Assembly (NCBI RefSeq): GCF_003073045.1
Contig: NC_037593.1
Span: 10,960,735 to 11,024,734, forward strand
Source: Pomacea canaliculata
Lineage: Eukaryota; Mollusca; Gastropoda; Architaenioglossa; Ampullariidae
Length of the DNA stretch: 64,000 nucleotides
Reading direction: 5' to 3'
The translations under genes and the position numbers were made by a program. Shown one piece after another: positions 1 to 21,482 of the stretch (position 1 is its first letter; every line of letters starts with the position of its first letter). The notes beneath the pieces were generated by a model. It was given only the letters and a program-made list of their open reading frames with translations, was not told the DNA's origin and did no database searches.

Positions 1-445
1 AACCAAGGCTTTTGGCAGGAACGTAAGTGTGATTTTGTTGTTTTCTTTAATCGTTTGACTACAGTGTGAATACAGTGTGAATATAGTGTGAATACAGTCG
101 CTGTTGAATGCCTCTTGTAGTCGAGGAACACCAACACTTGTTTACTTTGTCGTCTTTTAGAATCGCTGTTGTGTAAACAAAGCTTTATCACTATGTAAGT
201 TCACTCGCATCAGAAAATTTCGAAGTTTTGTAACTCCCAGAAAAGAAACCTATTCGAAGCTGTTTGCTTTTCGTTTTAAAGGTCTTCTTTTAACTCTTCT
301 GTGTTCCCATTGGTTTGCAGGTTACCCAGACGACGACTACGTAGACCAGCCAATCCGTGACAGGACTCCAACTCCTGCACCAATCGAAGGCGATGGACCT
401 CTAGCCTTGACCCAGCAGCCATGGAGGTCACGTCCGTTGTTCTGA
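1..445 (+). CDS. Gene A, 3' end of a cadherin-like receptor (partial, last two exons)
   Basis: Only the end of the gene is inside the window. Exon pieces are 1-22 and 321-445, joined in phase 1 (donor GTAAGT at 23, acceptor TTTGCAG ending 320), stop TGA 443-445. The joined peptide contains NQGFWQERYPDDDY, which matches the FWKERYPDDDY motif in the tail of gene B and WWKE-T-YANDDY in gene C, so it is the cytoplasmic tail of a third tandem paralogue. The tail then reads DQPIRDRTPTPAP and ends RSRPLF. Unlike B and C there is no C-terminal CaaX box in this reading. Either A has lost it, or a further exon follows a cryptic donor (GGAG|GTCACG near 426). I saw no such exon. Homology to B and C is seen in sequence; the receptor role is inferred from them. 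Confidence 0.65.
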
Positions 446-5764: not shown

Positions 5765-8595
5765 ATGGCAGTCGTTCTCGACCTCCTGATCCTGACTCTG
5801 GCACTACAGACACTTCAGTCACCTGCCACTGCCATGGTAAGACATGTTCTGTAAAGTACTCGAACCCCGACCTACACCCTCTACAACCTTAACACCTGTA
5901 TTTAAAATATTTTACTTCTCTTTTATCTCGTGTGCTGACCGCAAAACTGACATTTTCTACCAACTATCAGCTGTTTAAGTCCGTTTCTGTTTGAAACGTC
6001 ACGTGATGTTTGTTGTTTACTGCAGCCAGAGTTCGACGCCAGCAAACCGTCGGTGGTGACGCTGTACGAAAAGGAAACGACGGTGACTACACTGTCCACC
6101 GAGAACTGTACAGACCCCGGCAACTCGCCCACGGTCAGTCTCACCAGCGTCACACCTACAACACCGTGTGGACAGATCTGCTTTCAGGTCTTGCCGTGTG
6201 GGACAGGTGAGAGGGCAAAGTGGAGACAAAGACAAGAAGAGGACGGGTAGTTGCTTGATTCTTGGTGTTTAATGCCAAGTAAGGTATGTCACTGCAGGGG
6301 GAAGAGAAAAGAAGTCTACTTCTATAGACATCGCAAAGAGAGAGAAGCAAAACGTGTTTAAACTGACCGTTTGTGATCCTCGTTGTCCAAGCAGCAAGAG
6401 CAATACCGCTGAGTCACCAGGCTACCCAAAATAAAGAAAAAAGCAGATGATGACGAGTATTCAAGTTCCTATATTGGTTGTTAATTTTAAATGTTCTTAA
6501 TTCATCATGGGCAGCATTACATTGCTATCAATTCAATGGAATTTTCCAGCAATTTCTTGCTAATTCATGTCATTTTATGTTCAGTTCAAAATAAAAATGT
6601 TTTGCATTCAGCTATGTCTGTCTTTACACATCCCCAACCTACTGCTGTGTATGCTGCATTTCACTATACACTGCATTTTCCACACAGAATGGTGTGTGTA
6701 CTTCTTCCCCTCAATGGGGACACTGGACTACCGCAAGGCGTCTGCCTACTACGTCACGGTCACGTGCACGGCCAACGGCAGCTCCGTCAACAAAACCATC
6801 AACGTCAGGCTCACCCCCAACACGCCGCCGATATTTAACCCGGATGTATCCTTCCGTAAGTTTTAACCACTATGTATCCTGTACATTTTTAAGGTGTGAA
6901 GAAAATCATAAACATGCGTGTTGTAGGTAACTTGTGTACTTACTGCCACACTTACAAGTAAGTGATACTTTGTGATGCATACACTTGAGACACAGATACT
7001 TGCTAACATTTTTTCCAAGCTGTTGAAAGTAGTTTTTTGTTATTCTGCATTAATCTCTCTCTCTCTCACTCACACACACACAAATATATTGTTAGATTTC
7101 GTGTGTGCGTGCATAATATATATATATGTGTTGTGTGTGCGTGTGCATGTGTGTGCTTGTCTGTGTCTGCTGCTCACTGACAGAAACCACGACCCTAACC
7201 AACACCAAGAATGTCAAGGCTGGAACTAAGATCTTCACCGTCGGCGCTGTTGACGACAACAACGACACCATCATCTACACCATGACGTCAGAGCCTCAAT
7301 CCAGCAATTTCCAGATCGGCAGTGGTACGTTCTGGCATCAGTCGCATGTCTGACTAATTCTTCTAGGTGTAGTTGGTAGATTGTGCATGTTGATAAGTAA
7401 CGATTTTGTTCCCTAGACTTCTAGACTTCTTTCGCCATCGTCTCTGTCTTTCACACCTTCACATCCGGTTGCTACAGACCGTTTAATTGTCCACAGGCAC
7501 TGGGGTCATCACGGCTGTCCATGACCTCAGCTCGCAGTGCAGCAACAGCATCACCTTGCATGTCTACATCAGTGATGGCGTCAACCCTAGAGTCGGTCCC
7601 CAGGACATCGTTGTTACTTTGAGCGGTAAGACATCGGTTTCCCTGTGATAATTCAAGTGCCACCGAAATAATAGGCAGTTATTGTTATTGTTGCGTTATT
7701 TACGTCTTCAGGTAAACACAGGAGACAGAGAGTGTAGGCCATTCAGCCAATCTGGTATTTTTTCGCCCATCTACGAACTAATGTTACAGATCCGAACGCC
7801 TCCCCGGACATAACCAACCTCGACAGATCCGTGCAGGTCCTGGAGAGCAAGGCGGTTGGGGACAGCATCATGACGTTCACACCAACGGATGAGGCAACGA
7901 AACAGCTGACGTATACTCTAAGTGCTGACCCACCCTCCAATCTGGCCTTCTTTGATACATCAGGTAGGTCTAGTATATATCTGTGTCTTGGCATACCTTT
8001 CACACCGTAACTACAGTCATGACGAAATGGAAGCAGAGAATCCCGTTGCTAGGTGACGTATCTCCACACTCAACTACATTATGTACCTCCCTTCCGTCGT
8101 CTTCGATTCCAACTGCCCAATCCTCATCTCCTGCTGTTCCAGGACAAGACATTGTGGTGAAGTCCACGCTGAACTACGAGACTGTAGCGACACGAACCAC
8201 CAACCTGACGGTTGTGGCGCAAGATGCCAGCGGCTGTACGTCACAACCCCACTACCTGTACGTCACAGTCACTGACGTCAACGAGATGCCTCAGCTGTAC
8301 CCGAAGAACGCGGTGTACACCACCTACGAGGGCTCGGTGAGTCAGAGCGTGAGGTCAGCACCCAGCAGACAGGTCACGGAGACAGTTCGCGAGGATTTGT
8401 ACTGTGACGTGCTGAGGGCAGATAATAAAGAGGAGATACATTGAGTGACGTACCCTGTGACGCACTAATCATGTGTTGGTTCTTTTTAATCCTTCGTGCA
8501 CAGCGTAGGGACCTTCCTCTACAAGGGATATTATTGTTTGGTCTTTAAGATCTGATATTTTTAATTTCGTATGTTTGGCTTTGCGTACGTGTGTG

Positions 8596-8660
<65 letters not shown>

Positions 8661-11481
8661 CTGTGTGGCTGTGTGGCAAAGTGTGATGTAACACAGTGTC
8701 CAGTGTGTGTGTGTGCCTATGGCAAAGTGTGATGTAACACAGTGTCCAGTGTGTGTGTGCTCGTTTTCTGTGACAGTCGTAGTGAAATGTGACATAAATA
8801 ACTTGTATGTATGGTTCAGATCACTGTTCAGCCCTCCTGGACGGTGAAGGATGAGGATTTTGTTGATACGAGGACATACAGCATCATCTGGGGGCAACAG
8901 CCTCAACAGATTCAGGTAACCACACCATCCATCATGTCCCTCGACTAATTCGTCACTCTAGTGCCACATCTGTATCTGTCAGTCAGTGCTTTGTCCTTCC
9001 ATTCTTTTTCGTGATCCTTGTTTCACTTTGTTCCTCTATGTAAATAGCGTATAAGCACTCGTTTTTGTATTTTCTGAGTTCATTTCGTCCAACATTGCTT
9101 GTTACATCTGACCTTTGACCTCAGTTCGTGTGATCTGGCGTGTCTCAGGATCGATCCCAACACCGGCGACATCTCCTCCAACGTCGACTACGACGTTGAC
9201 GGTGGCGCCATGCCCACCACCGTGACCCTGACGGTAAAGGTCACGGACAAAGGCGGCCTGTCAGACAACACCACCGTCACCCTCAACATCCTGGACAGCA
9301 ACGACAACCGCCCTGTCGTCATCAACGGCCCCTACGACTACACCGTGCAGCCGTGCAACGTCAGGGCCGGGAGGACGCTGGGCACCATGGTGTGTCAGGA
9401 CAAGGACTCCAGCTTCCAGGGCAACAACGACACCTACTTCTCGTGAGGAACAATTAATGAAGGAATGAACGGATCAGTGAAGAAATGAATAAATAAATAA
9501 AAGGTTTTATTGTGTTTTTCTTTGATATATCCTTTCACTTACATTCTCCAGGAGTTCGGGAGGTACAGGTCTGACCATCCTGGCGAGCGGGGCCATCATC
9601 TTGAAGGACGTGCCACCCGAGGGTACCACCTACACCGTCACCGTCTACTGCTACGACAGAGGCCAGTACCCCAACCCCCTGCAGAGCCTCGCCCCGACAA
9701 TCGTCTCCGTCACAGGCATTGTGAGCTATGATGATCAGGAGGATGATGTAGATGACGACGATGATGACAGTGGCTAGTAACGACTATTTGTGCCATCGTT
9801 ATGACAGACATCACAGCAGACATTGAATTGTTACATTACCGATGTTGATAGTAACCAAGAAGTAACAAACAAAAAATTACATCGACAGCGGTAACCATGC
9901 AATCATTACATTTATTTTACGTTTAGTGATTTTCATTGACTATCGTGATTTATATTTACATTTGTAATGCTGTAAAAACTATTTCAGGAATGCCAAACAA
10001 CGACCGCGGCACCACCAGTCACAGCAGCGCCCAAAACTGCGGCCCCCACGACAACGACTACTTCTACAACAACGACGACACCAGCTCCATCCACTGCCAA
10101 CACCAAGAGCTGGGTGGACCAGAACCTGCCGTGGATCATGATAGCGGCGCTGCTGACGACGGGTCTGCTCGGTCTGCTGGCTTACCTGTTGGCCAGGTAC
10201 TGCTGGCCGGCCTGCCTCAGGTGTTGTCGCGGGAGATGGTGCCAGAGGTGGGTTGTCGTCCTTCTCGTTGTCTTGTAAACTCTGAAGAAATTTTTAATCA
10301 TACGTGTTCACTGACTGCTGGAGGTTTTTTTTTAACTACACAACCTTTTCTGTTCCTCTCTCTTTACTTCTTTCTATCGCGCGCTCTCTATCTTTTTTTG
10401 TGCCTCCCTTCTTCTCTCGCTCTCTCTTTACTGTGTTCTCTAAGCAGATCTCAGTGACCAACACTTACTTGTTTATGGTATCATTCACCACCACCGCCAC
10501 CACCGTCGTCGTCGTCGTCGTCATCTAACTATAACTACAATTATTTCTGTTCCAGTCGTCCTCCCAGACCGCGAGTTCGCCGCAATGTGACCCCGGCGCC
10601 ACTTCCTCCCTCCGACTCCGCCACCTCCCGTGTGAGTATTGAGTGTGAAAGGGAGAATACTCTCATGCAGTATGATTATCGCGTCCATCTGTCTATCTTC
10701 TGCATCTGAAAGGAAGAATACTCGGTTTCCGGTGTTAATATGACGTTTGGAAGGGAGAGAACTCTGTGTCCGTGTGCAATGAGTTGCAAGGAAGTCTTTT
10801 TTTTTTAAAATGTCGCTTCTTTAATCTTAAAAAATACAAAATTAAATAGAAATAAAATAGAAAATGCAGAAATACCAAAATCTAGTCACTGTAATTACTA
10901 AAACGTTGTTAGTCTGACGGGTAGGGTTAGCTTAGTTTAGACCTTAACTGTTGGATATCTTCATGTCCCTCAATAATCTCCACCTCACAGCTTTAATACA
11001 CATGTCTATAGACTGAATCTTAATGCGCGTGAACAGGTCTACACATGGCTGTAATATAGATATAAATATATATATAGCTATTTATAGCTCTAGTCACCTC
11101 TCTACATTTTACGCCGCGTGGATCATCACCACGTATCTCCACAAGGTCCAGGCCTTACCTGGCTGCCGCAAATAAATTCATTCCTACACATTGTGAATTT
11201 TTCGAGAACATTATTTGTAAAATCATATTTTTAATAGATTTTTATGTGATTGTTTTGAGATTTTTGTTTTTTGACACGTTCTTCGTGGCAGCATTGGAAG
11301 CCCCGACGCCTACCTGTATGACTTCTGGAAGGAGCGGTACCCGGATGACGATTACGGAAAACAACCCAACAGACAGGCCCCACCACTTCCGGTTGACTCC
11401 GTTCCTCAGGAAGACGGTGGTAAAAGCGTTGGTCAGCCGCTGACATCATCCAAGAAGTCACGAACGTGCAACATTCTGTAG
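5765..11481 (+). CDS. Gene B, cadherin-like single-pass receptor ending in a CaaX box
   Basis: Thirteen coding exons: 5765-5836, 6026-6206, 6688-6855, 7184-7324, 7497-7625, 7790-7963, 8143-8336, 8820-8915, 9149-9442, 9552-9720, 9988-10247, 10556-10631, 11292-11481. All have GT-AG borders. Exon 1 is a signal peptide (MAVVLDLLILTLALQ). Exons 2-3 form a Cys-containing module (CTDPG, TTPCGQICF, LPCGTG). Exons 4-10 hold cadherin-like repeats with LNYE, TVTDVNEMP, FRIDPNTGDI and LDSNDNRP calcium-site motifs. Exon 11 has a Thr/Pro-rich stalk, one membrane helix (WIMIAALLTTGLLGLLAYLLA) and RYCWPACLRCCRGRWC. The tail carries FWKERYPDDDY and ends TCNIL. Two junctions close in frame only if one base is removed from G5 at 8890-8894 and from C4 at 10591-10594; both probably are sequence errors. 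An acceptor at 5757-5758 suggests a 5' UTR intron. Adhesion or recognition at the cell surface is inferred from the cadherin fold. Confidence 0.85.
8587..8760. repeat. (TG)n microsatellite with a duplicated 46-bp unit, in a gene B intron
   Basis: A long TG run (about 8587-8660) is followed by two near-identical copies of a 46-base unit starting GGCAAAGTGTGATGTAACAC at 8675 and 8721. It lies in the intron between exons 7 and 8 of gene B. Confidence 0.85.
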
Positions 11482-11551
11482 ACGTGACACGGACAGTCAT
11501 GATAATTAGAGGGAAGATTAATTAAGACCTCGTCTTTGGTTATACAGTCAG

Positions 11552-11630
11552 GAGATTGATTGATTGATTGATTATTGATTGATTGACTGATTGATTGATT
11601 GATTGACTGATTGATTGATTGATTGATTCT
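11552..11630. repeat. (TTGA)n microsatellite
   Basis: GATT/TTGA units repeated with a few TTGACTGA interruptions, just downstream of the gene B stop codon. Confidence 0.9.
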
Positions 11631-12720
11631 CAAAATGAACATAGCTGAACACTGAAACTCGATGAAACCAATTTATGAACATTTTTGTCTCAGGGATTAC
11701 ATGAGCTTTGTCCTCATCTTGAAACACGTTTGATGTGACAAGGGACAGAGACATGTGACCATGGTTTGCTAACCATCAAATATCTAAAACTAATCTACTG
11801 AACCGTTAGTAGAATATTCTGATATTACAAACATGAACGTGAACATATCACAAATAATATATTTTATATATGATATAGCTATGTGTGTATATATCCTATG
11901 TAAGAGAGGGTGTGTGTGTGTTTGTGGGTTATTACAACTTATGAACGCGTGTAACCCCAAGACAGACATCAAAGACTGATTAATCAACCACAGGTTGGAA
12001 GTGGAAGTGGTTGAATGCTCTTACTCTCACCACCTGGACACAGGTAACACTGTGACTTTCCTGAACCAGCTTCTGCTGAGACCCTCGCTAAACCCAAACA
12101 TATTCACTTACCGACAGCTTTCCCTTACTCGGGTGTGCAAAGTGACAGGTACTTTTATTCTTGAAGTTTGAGGGTGGCATTGGCCAACCGACGACACAGA
12201 ATATTCACACACTGTCCAACAAACACAGTCAATACCTGTCAGGGTACACAAAGACACCCACAGTTACTCAGATATGACATATTCTTCACTGAGGTCACCT
12301 GAGGTTAGCTGTACGAAAACATGTCAAATATAAGCAATGTACCCGACACCCACTCATTGTCCACCCACGGAGCGCAAAACGACTTGCTCTGCATTTGACC
12401 CCATAAGCCGCACGCACCAACTTTGTTTATTTATTTATTTATTTTTGTCTCTTACCTGTTCTGTGCGTCATGTAGGTTTTTTTGAAAATCAGATTAATGT
12501 CATCTGGATGTGCGATTTATTTTTGTTGGCGACGTTGACAAAGAGGAAACTTTAAAGTCTTGATTGAATTACAACAATGTCAGTAAATGTTTTCTCCTCC
12601 TGCTTCTTTCCTTCTCTTCTTTTTTGTTTTTTCTCGCTTCCTTACATTTTGTTTACATATTTTAAACATACATGCAGAGAATGTAACGTAGGATCTATGA
12701 ACATGTGTTACAATTACCAC

Positions 12721-12763
12721 ACACAAACAAACAAACAAACAAACAAACAAACACACAAACAAA
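12721..12763. repeat. (ACAA)n microsatellite
   Basis: Perfect CAAA/ACAA units, with one CACA interruption near the end. Confidence 0.9.
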
Positions 12764-13564
12764 CACATGTGCACATTATGAAATAAAAGACAGTAAAAAG
12801 AGATTCATTTCATACATGTTTACCTCTTCGGATCTGAAACGTCACTGTATGAATGTAAACCCGTTTCTAAGAGCTAAAAATTTCTCTCCAAAAAATGACC
12901 ACCCAGCCCCCATCAAAAAAAAAAGGAGGAAGACCTGAGCCGTGACCCTCAGCGCCTCGCTGTCGGGTGGCTTTGAAGACTTTGTCTCTCTATGTGCTGT
13001 GTACCCCGCTGAACTTTTACAATCTGTTCTTTTGGATCAACATACGAAGCGGGTGAACAGAAATTTTCTGCTAACCGCCCACCCCACCTTCACTCCTGCA
13101 AACAAGGCTTTCACTCTTTCCTAACGGTCTTGTGTGCGGGTAGGAAGGCTTTCAGTCCGGGTGCACAGATCTTTGTCAACGACGCGCGAGCGCAAGCTGT
13201 TATCTGTCGGTCGTCCACCCCGGGTATGTATTGCCGCCTAAACGGCTTGATCCACCCTCGACACAGTCACAACGTGTTGTAGGCAGAAAGACTTGTTTTC
13301 AATCATCCAGACGAACTCCTTCAAAAGGAAAGGATCAGACAAATATTTGAAAACCCAGTGGAGGCGTTTTGTAGAACTTGTGGACATTTGGAGACTGTAT
13401 CTGTGACAACCGCTGATAATTGGGAGAGTTTGGTTAATTTATCTGTGGTGACAGCTGATGTGAGGATAATATGACGAGCACACTGACACATTACTAAGCT
13501 TCGGAGTTTTCTATAATTTTAAAACCTGGAATATCCAGTGTACGAGCATTGGACTTAAGGAAAC

Positions 13565-16500
13565 ATGGCTTCCAGCTCCTTTCTCTGTGTCTTGATCCTT
13601 ATTTTCATTCAGGACACAGGCTCTAGGCGCACCTGTGAGTATTTTTGAAACAGTCTTGACTGTGATTAATTTATTCAGTACCAGTGTTGTCCAGATGTTT
13701 ATTGGTTGTTTGTCGCAAGGGTTTGTAAGCCAAGAGTACGTATTGTTTATTTGTCTTAAATTGAATTGAAACATTCTTTGATATTTTCGTGTGTGTTATT
13801 TATTTATTCATACTTCATTCACTTTGTTTATGTTTGCTTTATATTTGTTTTGGTTCGTGATTAAAAAAACTAAATTTATTGAGGGTAGGATGGATAGAGT
13901 TATTTGCTGTAGGTATTTTAAACATATTGACTATTAATGTCTCATTGCTTATGCTATGCACTATCCTTTTGAGTGAGAACGTGAGTATGAGAGAGTGTGT
14001 GTGCATTGGTGTATGTGTGGTTGGTTATACAGTAACTGAAGGACTGTTGAGGACGAGCTCGGTTTCTGAGGGCGACAGTGTTTACAGCGCGCAACGAAAG
14101 CTCCGACCCTCCCTAGAAATACCCTTTACAATGCGGGCTATCAGGAGTGCAATAATCTCCCAAACTCCAAAATCTTCTTACGAGTTTATAACCCCCCCCC
14201 CCACCCATCCTTGCTACACATGCCAACTCACAACTAGGTGAATACGTTTGTATGTAAAATAAAAGCAGAACAGTCAAAATAGGCATTTTCTCAGAGAGAG
14301 AGATTATATAAACCATTCGTGAATCCGTAACAAAACTGCCGAAACAAATATCTCTATCTAAATTTTCAAGTTCAAAACTGTCGCCCAGGCAGCCCGGAAA
14401 CACGTCACGTAGGTTGTAGACTAACGTCTGCAGGTGTCTGTAGCCTCATAAGCATCTTGTCAGGCGGTTCTGTTGTTGCTGCAGCCCACCATCACAGTAA
14501 ACCCCAAAGGTGGCGAGGCTGAGTGAGTTCCAGACAGATCCGTCACTCTGTTTAATACCATGACCTGCACTGACCTAACGGAAAGACCTGCAGCATCCAG
14601 GTCAGCAGCATCTCTCCCAGCAGCCCTTGCGGCACCTGCTTTACGGTACTTCCATGTACTCCGAGTAAGTGACCTCCACACCTGTCTGTTGTCCACAGCA
14701 TAAAGACTTCCCATGCAAACTTCTTTTTCAGGGTTATTCCACCTAAATTTCTACCTGATTTTCTTTCTTTCTTTCCTTTTACACTCGTCTTTGTTTGTCT
14801 TTTAACTTATCTGTGCTGGGTGATCAAATCCTGTTCCTGGGAAAATTGTATACACTACGCCAGCTTCTTCTCTCGTAAGTAAAGTATCTCCTACCTATGT
14901 ATATTCTATTGTATCCTTACCAATCTCCTGTACATCTTATTGAATCTTTTACACTTTAGATATCCTATTGTATCCTTACCTGCCTCCTGTAATTCCATGA
15001 TATCCTTTTCAGCAAGTGTAAATGACATCGTTTTGTGATAGCATGTATACATAATATGTTTTTCACTAGGTGTGATGCGAGTTTTTCCCTTGTATATTCT
15101 TCCATACACTTTTTTACAATTTTGCCTTCTGAGTCAGATGTGTAGCAGTTAACACATCCATGTTTGAAATATTCGGCTTCTACCATTGTACATCATATCC
15201 ATAAACACTTTCAATATGTATATATTTATATTATATCAAACTGTATCGCCACTTGCAATCATACTCCTACGCACTACATTCAGCTTTGTCTAACGATCCA
15301 GGTTTCTGTCTATCACCGTGACAGACTCTTTTCTTGTTGACATGAGTGGTTCACTGGGTCAACACACGTCACGCAGTTTGTCTTGTGTCCTGCAGGCTAC
15401 TGCCTAAGGTATCTGTCCGGCCAGGGGTCGCTTAGTCCCTCCACTAGACCCTCCTACACGATCGTCGTCACAGCCACCAACCACGACGGGATGACCTCCA
15501 CAAGGTCGTCGACGTTCGAGTCACCACAAACGCACCCCCTTACTTCAACTACACGCAAATGAGCGGTCTGTTGCTTTATTTATTTATTTATTTATTTTAA
15601 ATTGTGTGTGATTAGAGGTCGGTGGGGAGAATATACACTGAAAACGATTCTGCGTGGATCTCTATTTCTATCGTTGTAAAAATACTTATTTTCTCCGGGA
15701 CACTTGCTTTACTCGTTCATTACATTAACCTACTCCAGATGACTGTTCAAGTAATAAAATTTATTTGTATGCCGTTCCTCAGATGTAACTTATTTATGGG
15801 AACCTTTTCTAATTTCAAAACGGAGTTAATAAAATTGATGTTTATCTTTTGCCTGTTAGTTTGGATGTTTGCCTGTGAGGATGTTTGCATGGATGTTTGC
15901 TTGATTATCTGCTGCATTTCGTGAATGAGAGAAAGATCTACTCGAGTGTAATGTTCTCCTCAATAACTGTGTTATGTTTATTTCGAGAATATAATTCCCG
16001 CAATCAAATGTCTTCTGTGGGGGAAAATCGCTCTTTAGTATTTCAGACATTGGCTTCTGTTGGTAGGTCTTTAAATCGTCAAATTTTCTTTGACAGCAAC
16101 GCCGGTGTCCAACGCTGAGTCTGTGGCGGCGGGATTTACCCTGGCCACTATCATGGCTGCCGATAACGAAAGTGATGCTCTCACCTTTTCCATGAGGACC
16201 GAACCCCCCACCAGCAACATCGACATCGACCCTGGTGAGTCTGGTGTTGTAGATGAGACTCATCCTTTCGTGTGACTTTCACGCTTGAAAAGTTGTGATA
16301 GAATTTGTCCTAGATTTACTGACTCATCTCATTAAAAAGTAATAATAAACATGTAATAAATAACCTTTATAAGGTAATACTTGCTTCGTTAAGACTCAGT
16401 TGTCAGTTGATGTCTATGTACCACCACTGCTTTACTTACGCTTCCATTGTCAAATGCTGTCTACCATCACCCTTTAAATTTACTACACTGATAAATCTCA

Positions 16501-19500
16501 TACATACAAGTCATGGTGCTGGTATTGACATTAGATAAGTAGCGTTGTCATCGCAATTTTTAAGATACAAGATTTTTTTGCAATTTTTCTGGCAGGACGG
16601 GAAGGATATTTGCTGTCAACAACCTGGCTTACGAGTGTCACAGCGAGATCACCGCACCTCGTCACGGTTCAAGATCCCTACAATGACCCCGTCGGCACCT
16701 TCGTCGAAAGCATCTTGCTCAACAGTAAGTACGTCATCTCCATGTACACCACAGTCATCGTTAAATATCTAGCGGCATGGAACTATTTTTTTTTCTCATT
16801 ACTATGCAAAACTCTGTGTAAAAGACCACGTTTTCATACTCTGGATGAAGGCATTATATACATTATATACATTATGTACACTATATACAGTGTGTACATT
16901 ATATACATTATATGCATTATATACAGTATATACATTATGTACATTATATACACTATATACAGTGTGTACATTATGTACATGTGTATATGTGCGCCATCTT
17001 GGGCAGATGCTAACTACGCTCCGTTCATCACCAACCTCAACTCCGAGTGAGGGTTCGCGAGGACGAGGGATTACGGGCAAGACAGTCTTAAAGTTCGCGG
17101 GGTACGACGACGACACCACCGCCCAGTACAACACCATCACCTACCAGACCTCCATCGCGCCCTCTACAGCCGCCGACATGTTTGACGTCACACGTAAGCA
17201 GTCAAGATCAACGGTGCTGCAGTTTGCAAGTTTGCGCATGCGTGCAAGAATAGTCGAGTGTGTGGCTGTTTGGATGAAAAACAAGACATACACGTGAGCC
17301 GGAGAGGACACGATGCCAAATCACTCTGCTGATGTTGACTTTTTCTGTTCCCTCCAGCAGCCAAGGGCGAGGTGGTGGTGAAGTCGGCGCTGGACTACGA
17401 GACGCAGCCCAAGGTCATCACCATGTACGTCACAGCCACGGACGGCTACTGCTTCGTCCGAGACGTACCAGCTGACCATCCGACTGGTGGACATCAACGA
17501 ACCCCCGATCCTCCTCCCGATTGACCAGACGATCCAGTCGTGCGAAGGACGGGTAAGGCAACTTCCCATCTGCCGATGAGAATGGAGAGGAAATTTAAGT
17601 ACATTCTAGAGTTTCATACGTTACCTGAGAGTTTTAGATGAACAGAAATGCAGCGAGAGTACGCATGACACGGAAACTGTTCCCGTCTCATCCTCTAGCG
17701 CATTAGCATCCCCCGCCCGAGTACAGTCGAATAGCTGGTATGCGTTTGTAGCAGACTAAATACGAACATTTATCAGGAATTTTGTGACTCTCAATGACTC
17801 AGCATCCAGGTAGTCTTTGTATACTCGGTATTCGGGTGCGAACCTGTAGGTCTATTTCACAAGTGGTCACAGAGAGTTATCTTTCCTAGAGCCAAAGTAG
17901 CTCTCAACTTTTACGCCATCTACCTGAGGTATTCGACAGTCGCGCATGACAGTATCGAAATGAAAGTCGATGCTACTAGTGGTTGTTATAGTTTCGACTT
18001 AAAGCGAGAAGGAGTGGCTTTGCTGTGTGTTGCTACAGGTGACCATCACACCCGACTGGCAGGTGTCGGAACCAGATGCTGGCGACATCGTCAAGTTCAC
18101 TGACATCCAGGTCAACGACAAAGGCTACTTTCAGATCGACGAAGACACAGGTAATGTTTGTGTGCTCCCGACACCTGGGAGCCAGACGTTAAGTAATCGC
18201 GTAGAAATGGCGAGAGCCTTTTCAGACGTGAGAGCAGCAGGGTCACTAGTTGTGGTAGGTCACCGCATTGTAAAACTCTGGGTTCAGAACTCTCGTATAT
18301 GACACCTGTTTGCAATTGTGTAAGCTGTGCCGTCTTCGGTTTCCTGTTTCTTTACAGTACACCTTTAGGTGGAATTACATTCTCATCAAACCAACTACCA
18401 ACACTGTGTCAAATTATAGAAACAGCACGTCACAATCTGTTACAGGTCAGACTCAATTACCGAAAAGAACAGCACTTGTACAGGTTATCAAAGTGTTATG
18501 ATCAGCAAGTGTTGTCAATGTGTCACAGCACGGTCACAATTTTACAGGTCAGGTGTCCACAACCATTGACTACGACCTGGACGCGCCGGTGATAAGATGT
18601 CGCCGACAGTGGTCAAGACGGTGACAGTCACTGACCGCCAGGGTCTCACAGCCACCTCTACCTGACGATACGCTTCGCCGACTGCAATGACAACGCCCCC
18701 GTCTTTGTGGTATGGCAACAAACACAATCATAACAACAACACCAGTGTTCATGGGATGACGACAATTTTTATTTATTTATTGGTATGACGACATGCGTTC
18801 GATGAATAACGTCATATGACGGGTCAGTGGTATGACGTCACAGTCAACTGTAGGAATTTAAACTTTTTTTGAATTTTTTAAAAATTATTATTATTATTAT
18901 TTTCCAAAAGTACGTACAAGTTCAGGAACCGTTATTTATTTATTTCAGAAAAGCGCGTACGAGTTCTTGAACCGCGACTGCTGGACGGCAGGGACCGTGC
19001 TGGGCACCGTCTCCGCCACCGACCAAGACTCGTCCTACGAGCAGAACAACATCTTCTCCTTCTCCGGATCAGGGGCAGGGGTCGAAGTTCAACCATCCGG
19101 CCCTGTCGTCCTCACCGCGACCTCAGCGCCGGGACAGTCGTGACCTTTCCTGTCTACGCCACAGACCAGGGCAAAACGCCAGGCCCCCTCACCAGCGTCT
19201 CCCCCACCTGGGTGTCTATATACACCATGGTCAGTCGCCTCCTCTTGTACTTCGGGTGCTCTGATGACATCTGCTTTAATAACTGTCATCTGTCCATTAT
19301 TCATTATATTATCTTTTTTTCGCGTTAACCAATCATCCATACGCTAAACTGTCAAATGTCTCTTGCCTCCCCTCCGCAGCCGTGCATCACCCCGTCTCCT
19401 GTCCCGAAGGTAACGGATCCCCCAGTCGCCAACACCACCAACGCCACCGTCAGCTACTTCAACATCTCCTCGCCCATGGGCACCAACCTGCCGTGGATCA

Positions 19501-21482
19501 TCTTGGCGGCCATCCTAGCGGCGCTGCTGACGGCGTTGCTGCTGTACATGTGCATCCGCTACTGCTGGCCTTGTCTGCGGAGATGCTGCACGCGGTGCAC
19601 TCGGTGCACCAGGTGAGTCAGATACAAGAGGTGAAAGAAGCCTGTAAGGTCCAACGGCGTTTTGTTTTTCTTGGTTTCGTCATCTTTTTATTGAAGTAAA
19701 GTTACATGACACACGGCAAATATCCATGGTCCTTTCTCTGGGCTTGTACTTTGGTGGCTCCATCTTCCTCTCCATGTAGAGATAGGTTGGCCTGGTCACG
19801 AACATACGGGCACTGGGCCCTGGCTGGTACCGTCATTGCTTGAAGCCTTCTCTAGCTGATGCTATATTCAAAAGTTCTCTGAAAACAGATTTGTTCACTA
19901 AGTACTATTCCCTTAATTACTGTCTTTAACTCCTGTTGCAATACTGTCTGCTAACCACCATTTAACGACCGCATCTTACACTGTTTACAGTATCTACCTC
20001 CCTTCATACCTTCATCCATTACAGCCATTCACATCCAACACAGAAAGTCATACAGACGCATATTAATGGCAATCTGAACAAAAGTACGGGAATTTAAGTA
20101 ATCAGTTTGAGCTTTTAAAAAAAGACATAAACCCATTTTTGAACAGGAAACCAAAAGCAAGACTAAACAGACCGATCACGCCAACAAGACGACCTACTCC
20201 AGTTGCTCAACCGTTAGTATTTTTTATGTTTGAGTTATTTTTTAAAAGGTACTTCTAAACACTTTTTATTTTTAGTGTGTATTTGGTTTTATTTAGTTAG
20301 TTTTTTGTTTGTTTGTTTTGTTTTGTTTATTTTATTTTATTTATTTTTTTTTTATTTATTTATTTGCTATTTTGCTGAATAACGACTGTATCCCTTTCTC
20401 TTTAATCGTCTGAATCGTTAAAAAAAAGTTGTTATGTTCCCCAACTCTCTCTGTACATTCTTTTAGATAATATTCTAAAGGTACTTTTTCGGAACACATG
20501 TCTTTTAATCACCTTTACTCATAAAGTATCTGGAATAATCCTTGGTATTGGAGTTAAATGGTTACAAACATCCAGGCGGAGTTAAGATAAGGGGAGACTA
20601 GCCTCTGACTAATCATTTGTGTATTTTGAGGTTCCTTCCCTTGCATCATAGAGCGCTATTCCGTAATTGTCTAACATCGCCCCTGACTGTTGTTTGACAG
20701 GGAGAAACCACACCCTGGCTTTATCTTCGGCTGGTGGAAGGAAAGTGAGTATCCATCTCTGTACCGTCTCAAACTGGTCCTTTCATCCTTTCTTCTCATT
20801 TCCACATCATGATGTAAAATAGCAATTATTTACTTACTATTAATATTCCTCAGTTTATTAATTTTATAGTTGTGCTAGTACTTGCTATATTTGCTGTAAA
20901 CATCAGCAATGTATCATTTTAAACCCATCTTCTCCACCCACTACCAACACCTTTTCGGTTGCTTGTTTCTAACCTACTGGCATCACAGTGTGATAATGTT
21001 GAAAAAAGTCTGTCACCAAGATTAGTTTCAAAATTATAGGTAGCCTCTCTCTCTCTTTTACTCACTTCCTCCCTGTATGTCTCAATTTCTCTCACTCTCT
21101 CTGTCTCTTTATGTCTCTCATTCTCTGTATTTCATAAAATTAATTTTCTCGTGTTGAAGGTGCATATCTGTGGCGTCCTGCTATCGTTGTGTTGTTAGTT
21201 TATGTTTCCTTCCATTCCCTCAGACTCTCTCTTCCTCTCTTTTCTTGGAAACATTGTGTTAAGCTCTACAAGTTTGTGCGACTGCATGCTTCATTCCACT
21301 CCACTGATTCCCATGTTGCAGCTTATGCAAACGACGACTACAAGACGACTCCTGATAGGACGAACATTCCGGAACCTTCCAAAGGCCCTGAGATACCAGA
21401 GACCAACACTTACGATGTTGACCCTGTGTTAACCCCTCCACCTCCTGACCCACCACAAGAAAAGACGTGCATTATTTTGTAG
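13565..21482 (+). CDS. Gene C, cadherin-like single-pass receptor ending in a CaaX box
   Basis: Fourteen coding exons: 13565-13634, 14485-14664, 15396-15565, 16097-16234, 16596-16724, 17007-17193, 17358-17552, 18039-18150, 18548-18709, 18949-19229, 19380-19612, 20147-20212, 20701-20744, 21322-21482. Exon 1 is a signal peptide (MASSSFLCVLILIFIQDTG). Later exons match gene B in order, length and phase: SPCGTCFTVLPC module, LDYETQ, VDINEPP, FQIDEDTG, ADCNDNAPV, membrane helix (WIILAAILAALLTALLLYM) and RYCWPCLRRCCTRCTRCTR. The tail has WWKETYANDDY, a PPPPDPP stretch and ends KTCIIL. Twelve one-base length changes, ten apparent losses and two gains and nearly all in short homopolymers, must be allowed to keep the frame. 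With them, exon lengths agree with B (exon 5 is 129 in both, exon 7 is 194 in both). No stop from a base substitution was found, so sequence error is likelier than decay, though a pseudogene is not excluded. Confidence 0.8.
14906..14996. repeat. Short direct duplication in a gene C intron
   Basis: The phrase CTATTGTATCCTTACC followed by a variable pair and CTCCTGTA occurs at about 14906 and again at about 14967, roughly 61 bases apart. Confidence 0.6.
16851..16983. repeat. TATAC/CATTA minisatellite in a gene C intron
   Basis: Irregular units of about 9-10 bases (CATTATATA, CATTATGTA, CACTATATA, CAGTGTGTA) alternate. A higher-order block of several units appears twice. It ends about 25 bases before the acceptor of exon 6, and the units are partly self-complementary. 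Confidence 0.8.
19745..19930 (+). mobile_element. Short LINE 3'-end remnant in a gene C intron
   Basis: One frame reads LKPSLADAIFKSSLKTDLFTKYY followed by a stop. This resembles the 'FKxxLKTxLF' ending common to reverse transcriptase ORFs of non-LTR retroelements. No reverse transcriptase core is present, so only the last part of a copy would remain. It lies between exons 11 and 12 of gene C. The call rests on one short motif. Confidence 0.35.

What the first reader, a model, noticed from the sequence alone, without database searches (positions are those of the whole stretch)
5765..21482. Tandem cadherin-like receptors whose cytoplasmic tails end in CaaX boxes
Genes B and C code for type I membrane proteins (signal peptide, cadherin-like repeats, one helix). 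Both end exactly at the stop codon with Cys-aliphatic-aliphatic-Leu (CNIL, CIIL). X = Leu favours geranylgeranyltransferase I, as in Rho, Rap and G-gamma proteins. The box is kept in both although the tails around it have diverged (KKSRT before one, QEKT before the other). The juxtamembrane RYCWP plus Cys/Arg strip would suit palmitoylation. A tail tethered at both ends to the membrane would be an unusual design; I know of no classical cadherin or protocadherin family with it.
Basis: partly seen in the sequence, partly recalled or inferred. Interest (0 to 1): 0.75.

Follow-up and report, generated by a model that had tools for sequence, protein, structure and literature searches.

The report
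Snail cadherins ending in CaaX boxes
A small family of cadherin-type surface receptors in what appears to be an apple-snail genome ends in the four-residue signal that normally tells a cell to attach a lipid, which would tie the receptor's inner tail to the membrane at both ends; it is an unusual design, so far only predicted from sequence.

Summary
B ends KKSRTCNIL-stop (11467-11481), C ends QEKTCIIL-stop (21468-21482). A transmembrane-exon search of the same genome gave five members: A (ends at window 445), B, C, and minus-strand D and E about 0.5 Mb away. D and E give in-phase 13-exon GT-AG models (779, 809 aa), both ending PPKRKVCNIL-stop. So 4 of 5 members, or 3 of 4 deep lineages, end in C-x-I-L; A ends RSRPLF. 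In the last 30 residues little else is shared, and Cys -4 is the only Cys in the last exons of B, C, D and E. The ectodomains are cadherin repeats (PF00028); prenyltransferase-type genes are present.

Cautions: C's ectodomain, as assembled, has about six frame breaks (pseudogene or assembly indels). One B splice junction does not keep frame with its best donor. No RNA and no other mollusc were available. Prenylation is untested; a PDZ ligand is the main rival.

Best reading: cadherin-superfamily receptors with a geranylgeranylated tail, possibly palmitoylated beside the membrane. New variant of a known kind.

The parts
5765..5836 (+). Gene B exon 1: signal peptide MAVVLDLLILTLALQTLQSPATAM, donor GTAAGA
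6026..9720 (+). Gene B ectodomain exons with cadherin repeats: 6026-6206, 6688-6855, 7184-7324, 7497-7625, 7790-7963, 8143-about 8342, about 9125-9442, 9552-9720
   Evidence: PF00028. A short exon between 8342 and 9125 was seen only by eye (frames) and not modelled
9988..10247 (+). Gene B Thr-rich stalk, transmembrane helix and RYCWP Cys/Arg strip
10556..10631 (+). Gene B first cytoplasmic exon (SRPPRPRVRRNVTPAP...); its best donor (GTGAGT at 10632) is out of phase with the last exon
   Evidence: the model used a weak donor after 10669 instead
11292..11481 (+). Gene B last exon (IGSPDAYLYDFWKERYPDDDY...KKSRTCNIL-stop); in C, D and E the same stretch is two exons
11467..11481 (+). CaaX box CNIL plus stop, gene B
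14574..19220 (+). Gene C ectodomain exons; frame breaks near 14573, 15490, 17455, 18585, 18650 and 19125
   Evidence: five from alignments; the one near 14573 by eye
19380..19612 (+). Gene C transmembrane exon and RYCWP Cys/Arg strip
20147..20212 (+). Gene C first cytoplasmic exon (basic, Pro-rich)
   Evidence: chose a later donor in the same phase
20701..20744 (+). Gene C 44-base middle exon (EKPHPGFIFGWWKE); same length and phase as in D and E
21322..21482 (+). Gene C last exon, ending QEKTCIIL-stop
21468..21482 (+). CaaX box CIIL plus stop, gene C
1..22 (+). Gene A middle exon, 3' part (it begins 19 bases upstream of the window; 41 bases in all)
321..445 (+). Gene A last exon (YPDDDYVDQPIRD...RSRPLF-stop): third tandem member, no CaaX
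   Evidence: start 321 by eye from TTTGCAG, the assembler chose 282

Best explanation
A-E are a subfamily of single-pass cadherin-superfamily receptors of this snail-like genome. Their cytoplasmic tail is about 100-160 residues and has no catenin-binding domain in a Pfam scan (D only). It probably starts with palmitoylatable cysteines beside the membrane and ends, in B, C, D and E, in a C-x-I-L box read by geranylgeranyltransferase I. After prenylation, removal of the last three residues and carboxyl methylation, the tail would lie as a loop tied to the inner leaflet at both ends, holding its basic/Pro-rich and (in D, E) coiled segments at the membrane and steering the receptor to particular membrane domains or partners. 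Shown: the sequence, in-phase gene models for D, E and the C tail, retention of the box in three of four deep lineages, presence of the enzyme families. Inferred: cytosolic topology, prenylation, palmitoylation, function.
For: 4 of the 5 members found by the transmembrane search end in C-[NI]-I-L. D and E are 13-exon models in phase to the stop; the C tail joins GT-AG in phase. In the last 30 residues of B, C and D, columns -4, -2 and -1 are invariant against 1 of the other 26 (post hoc hypergeometric 0.004). That Cys is the only one in the last exon of B, C, D and E. D versus E: dN/dS 0.47 overall, 0.36 for TM plus tail; in CNIL only a synonymous AAT/AAC change. Other frames ending C-x-a-L: 5 of 2945. 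PF00432 prenyltransferase exons at three loci, 0 of 14 control genomes; one ICMT-family locus.
Against: A has no Cys in its last exon. C may be a pseudogene. One B junction is unresolved. D versus E last exon alone has dN/dS 0.85 on few changes. The residue after Cys is Asn in B, D and E, not aliphatic (tolerated in CaaX boxes by recall). The ICMT family also rings in 5 of 14 prokaryote controls, so that match is not specific. Everything comes from one genome, without RNA or biochemistry.
Confidence: 0.62

Rival explanations
1. The C-terminus is kept as a PDZ ligand (hydrophobic last residue), not as a prenylation signal; or it serves as both, as described for the prostacyclin receptor.
For: CIIL fits a class II ligand (hydrophobic at -2 and 0; classes recalled). 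The prostacyclin receptor's CSLC end is farnesylated and also a PDZK1 ligand; the farnesylated peptide did not bind in vitro, although earlier cell work suggested binding independent of prenylation (PMC3566133, passages). A, without Cys, still ends in hydrophobic LF.
Against: B, D and E have Asn at PDZ position -2, which fits neither class I nor class II. A PDZ ligand does not need the Cys, yet it is present in all four and is the only Cys of the exon.
Confidence: 0.17
2. The box is inherited from a common ancestor and no longer used; the tandem copies are decaying.
For: C has about six frame breaks; B has an out-of-phase junction; A lost or never had the box; a fragment reading KICNIL-stop lies in a D intron.
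Against: D and E models are unbroken, with dN/dS 0.47. The box outlasts nearly all residues before it. C's breaks are small indels and its tail exons and their splice sites are whole, which assembly error would also produce; C's ectodomain splice sites were not checked.
Confidence: 0.12
3. Splicing artefact: the CaaX exons are not the true ends of the main transcripts.
For: No RNA was available; the B junction 10631 to 11292 is out of phase with its best donor.
Against: The exon pair (44-base middle exon, last exon) keeps the same phases in C, D and E and corresponds to one fused exon in B; D and E share their amino-acid frame up to the stop.
Confidence: 0.09

Closest known systems
Protocadherin/FAT/CELSR-type cadherin superfamily (PF00028)
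   Same: Signal peptide, tandem cadherin repeats with LDYE and DxNDN-type motifs, one hydrophobic helix; the best PDB sequence matches of the D membrane-proximal segment are CELSR1, protocadherins and cadherin-23 (60 of 165 matches shown).
   Different: Short tail without a catenin-binding domain in the Pfam scan of D, ending in CaaX. No cadherin with a CaaX end was seen in the listings of searches; one search held no paper.
Prostacyclin receptor (IP)
   Same: Integral membrane receptor whose cytoplasmic tail ends in a conserved CaaX (CSLC) that is farnesylated and needed for coupling and internalisation (PMC3566133, passages).
   Different: GPCR, farnesylated box, unrelated protein.
CLN3
   Same: Transmembrane protein with C-terminal CQLS, a farnesyl acceptor in vitro (PMC6900386, passages).
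   Different: Lysosomal, not an adhesion receptor; mutating the box did not alter its lysosomal localisation, and that review knows no data showing an in vivo function of its modifications.
Rho, Rap and G-gamma GGTase-I substrates (recalled)
   Same: C-a-a-L end; basic residues before it in B, D and E.
   Different: Soluble proteins for which the lipid is the main anchor; here a transmembrane helix already anchors the protein.

Membership tests
Cadherin superfamily | Tandem PF00028 repeats above the gathering cut-off | tested here: met
   D 9.4e-20 with 3 stretches, B N-terminal part 7.9e-15 with 2 stretches; B membrane-proximal part 25.3 bits, under the cut-off of 28.8
Cadherin superfamily | Signal peptide and single transmembrane helix | tested here: met
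   B signal exon, D/E first exons, TM alignment of five members; judged by eye, no topology predictor was run
Classical cadherin | Catenin-binding cytoplasmic domain | tested here: not met
   Pfam scan of the D model at E up to 1 gave only Cadherin and Cadherin_4; the tails of A, B, C and E were not scanned
GGTase-I CaaX substrate | Cys at -4, aliphatic a2, Leu at the C-terminus | tested here: met
   CNIL in B, D and E, CIIL in C; not met in A
GGTase-I CaaX substrate | Enzymes present in the same genome | tested here: met
   9 PF00432 matches at three loci on C8, C11 and C13, 0 of 14 controls; one ICMT-family match on C2, but that family also rings in 5 of 14 controls. Which locus is the GGTase-I beta subunit was not resolved; the alpha subunit and RCE1 were not searched
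GGTase-I CaaX substrate | Covalent geranylgeranyl on the Cys | not testable with these tools
   needs biochemistry
PDZ ligand | Class I, II or III residue at -2 | tested here: inconclusive
   Ile in C fits class II; Asn in B, D and E fits none (classes recalled)
CaaX-tailed cadherin family across animals | CaaX conserved in orthologues of other molluscs or annelids | not testable with these tools
   no other animal genome is held according to the tool descriptions

The most novel reading that the evidence does not exclude
A gastropod cadherin subfamily evolved doubly tethered tails: a transmembrane helix with palmitoylated juxtamembrane cysteines at one end and a geranylgeranylated C-terminus at the other, so that the signalling tail is a membrane-hugging loop whose release or capture (by prenyl-binding chaperones or PDZ proteins) could be regulated.
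Probability: 0.4. Interest if true: 0.75.

Novelty: new variant of a known kind. Interest (0 to 1): 0.6.

Why it matters
Prenylation normally brings soluble proteins to membranes. A transmembrane adhesion receptor that keeps a CaaX box through gene duplication implies that the lipid does something other than anchoring, such as sorting, hiding the tail or recruiting prenyl-binding proteins. The two precedents found here, the prostacyclin receptor and CLN3, are not adhesion receptors. It is directly testable by expressing one tail in a standard cell line.

Tried and rejected
Considered and set aside: a chance C-terminus (5 of 2945 other frames end so; four family members share it). Cytoplasmic exon joined directly to the last exon: out of frame in C, D and E until the conserved 44-base middle exon was found. 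Tails of the neighbouring minus-strand relatives F, G and H as an outgroup: not resolved for any of the three. F has a stop ten residues after its helix, but a donor-like GTGAGC lies at that stop, and the scan downstream gave one possible short terminal exon in F ending CSIK, not a typical box; none for G or H (one search printed nothing because of a wrong option). So whether the box is special to A-E is open. Tree of A-H: A, B, C and D/E not resolved (supports 42 and 43), F-H split off at 100, so an ancestral box lost in A is not separated from other orders. Another cadherin array on C1 as control: two stretches read, no tail found. Structure prediction was not run, since Pfam and PDB sequence matches already show the fold. 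first used a wrong exon end for C (20214); corrected to 20212. In some searches the printed translation of the second half of B starts in mid-codon and is meaningless; only its exon coordinates were used. The gene models rest on anchor peptides that I chose and a simple splice-site score recalled, not trained; the seventh exon of D and of E has an acceptor scoring below zero, the second exon of E and the eleventh of D probably start too far upstream.

Full report
Setting. The window is C4:10960735-11024734 of a genome of 440,159,624 bases in 24 contigs. That fits the Pomacea canaliculata assembly (440,071,717 bp, 14 chromosome scaffolds, longest 45.4 Mb; PMC6129957, passages); contig C1 here is 45,418,568 bases. 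The species is therefore very likely the apple snail, but no tool named it.

Observation. The two C-termini are exactly as described. B: SSKKSRTCNIL-stop; C: PPQEKTCIIL-stop. B starts with a convincing signal peptide at 5765. Cadherin repeats are significant (PF00028: N-terminal part of B 7.9e-15, paralogue D 9.4e-20; the membrane-proximal part of B alone is under the cut-off). The closest solved structures to a 184-residue D segment, by sequence, are CELSR1, protocadherins and cadherin-23.

Family. The transmembrane exon of B, searched over the whole genome, gives five matches: A, B, C and two minus-strand genes at C4:11.463 Mb (D) and 11.453 Mb (E). The same search with C's exon gives four of the five and misses E. 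The tail queries find only themselves or their near twin: B's last exon finds itself, plus three matches at E 0.3 to 2.6 that I take as chance; D's finds D and E. The C last exon was not searched. Reading D and E showed that both end PPKRKVCNIL-stop.

Gene structure. D and E assemble as 13 exons each, all GT-AG with matching phases, 779 and 809 aa. The models rest on anchors chosen by me; the seventh exon of each has an acceptor that scores below zero, and one start in each is probably too far upstream. In D and E the tail has four exons: TM with R-Y-C and a Cys/Arg strip; a basic Pro-rich exon; a 44-base middle exon ending F-W-K-E; and the last exon. The C tail follows the same plan, 19380-19612, 20147-20212, 20701-20744 and 21322-21482, in phase, with donors GTGAGT, GTTAGT and GTGAGT. 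In B the middle and last exons are one exon (11292-11481). In A the middle exon is 41 bases, the basic exon was not found, and the last exon ends RSRPLF-stop.

Conservation of the box. In the last 30 residues of B, C and D (ungapped from the stop), columns -4, -2 and -1 are invariant, and 1 of the other 26 columns is (post hoc hypergeometric 0.004). Cys -4 is the only Cys in the last exon of B, C, D and E. In the B and C tails the cysteines sit only near the membrane and at -4 (the B tail there leaves out its unresolved junction). R-Y-C after the helix is invariant in all five. Background: 9 of 2949 open frames of at least 40 codons end in C-x-aliphatic-L; 4 are these genes, and one is a fragment in a D intron that by eye resembles the D/E 3' end. 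The four lineages A, B, C and D/E are deeply diverged and their branching is unresolved, so B, C and D/E count as three lineages, not four independent cases. D/E dN/dS is 0.47 overall, 0.36 for TM plus tail, and 0.85 for the last exon alone on 4 synonymous and 12 non-synonymous changes; the box itself has only one synonymous change.

Problems. C's ectodomain has about six frame breaks inside exons that are unbroken in D and E: five from alignments, one by eye. They are small shifts without an intervening gap; no nonsense substitution was noticed in the aligned frames, but C's ectodomain splice sites were not checked. Assembly error and recent pseudogene both remain open. In B the best donor (GTGAGT at 10632) leaves no partial codon, whereas the last exon needs two bases; the best in-phase alternative scored -2.0. 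A lacks the box. The related genes F, G and H could not be used as an outgroup, because their tails are unresolved.

Mechanism. The likeliest reading is geranylgeranylation by GGTase-I (C-terminal Leu), then removal of the last three residues and methylation. Prenyltransferase exons (PF00432) are at three loci, with 0 of 14 control genomes positive; one ICMT-family locus was found, though that family also rings in 5 of 14 prokaryote controls. With the helix and possible palmitoylation at the other end, the tail would be a loop on the inner leaflet. Precedents for a CaaX on integral membrane proteins are the prostacyclin receptor, farnesylated at CSLC, where the same end is a PDZ ligand and the farnesylated peptide did not bind in vitro although earlier cell work suggested binding independent of prenylation (PMC3566133, passages), and CLN3 (PMC6900386, passages). 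The PDZ rival fits CIIL but not CNIL.

Novelty. No cadherin with a CaaX end and no single-pass prenylated receptor was seen in searches (15 of 144 papers listed; 5; 2; 12 of 1,198 listed; 0 papers; 0 papers). These cover an open-access library and only listings were read. This is a new variant of a known kind: cadherin repeats plus a known lipidation signal, in a new combination.

Noticed in passing
14574-19220: Gene C ectodomain exons 2, 3, 7, 8 (twice) and 9 carry frame breaks as assembled, while the tail exons and their splice sites are intact.
   Followed up: partly
321-445: Third tandem member A; its last exon resembles B (YPDDDY..QP) but ends RSRPLF without Cys, so the box was lost or never present there.
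   Followed up: partly
11292-11481: Middle and last exons that are separate in A, C, D and E are fused in B, an apparent intron loss.
   Followed up: partly
C4:11467025 (minus strand), in an intron of D: Fragment reading NCKICNIL-stop-KRFQT, by eye similar to the D/E 3' end: perhaps a relic of another tail copy.
   Followed up: no
about C4:10918100-10950300, minus strand (L010 to L007): Three related cadherin-like genes (F, G, H) with a different transmembrane segment; their tails are unresolved. F has a stop ten residues after its helix with a donor-like site at that stop.
   Followed up: partly
L036 and L037 (last exons of D and E): D and E last exons hold a charged, coiled-coil-like stretch (EEMAEKEAIARERQEKIAKYEKEV in D) not seen in A, B and C.
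   Followed up: no
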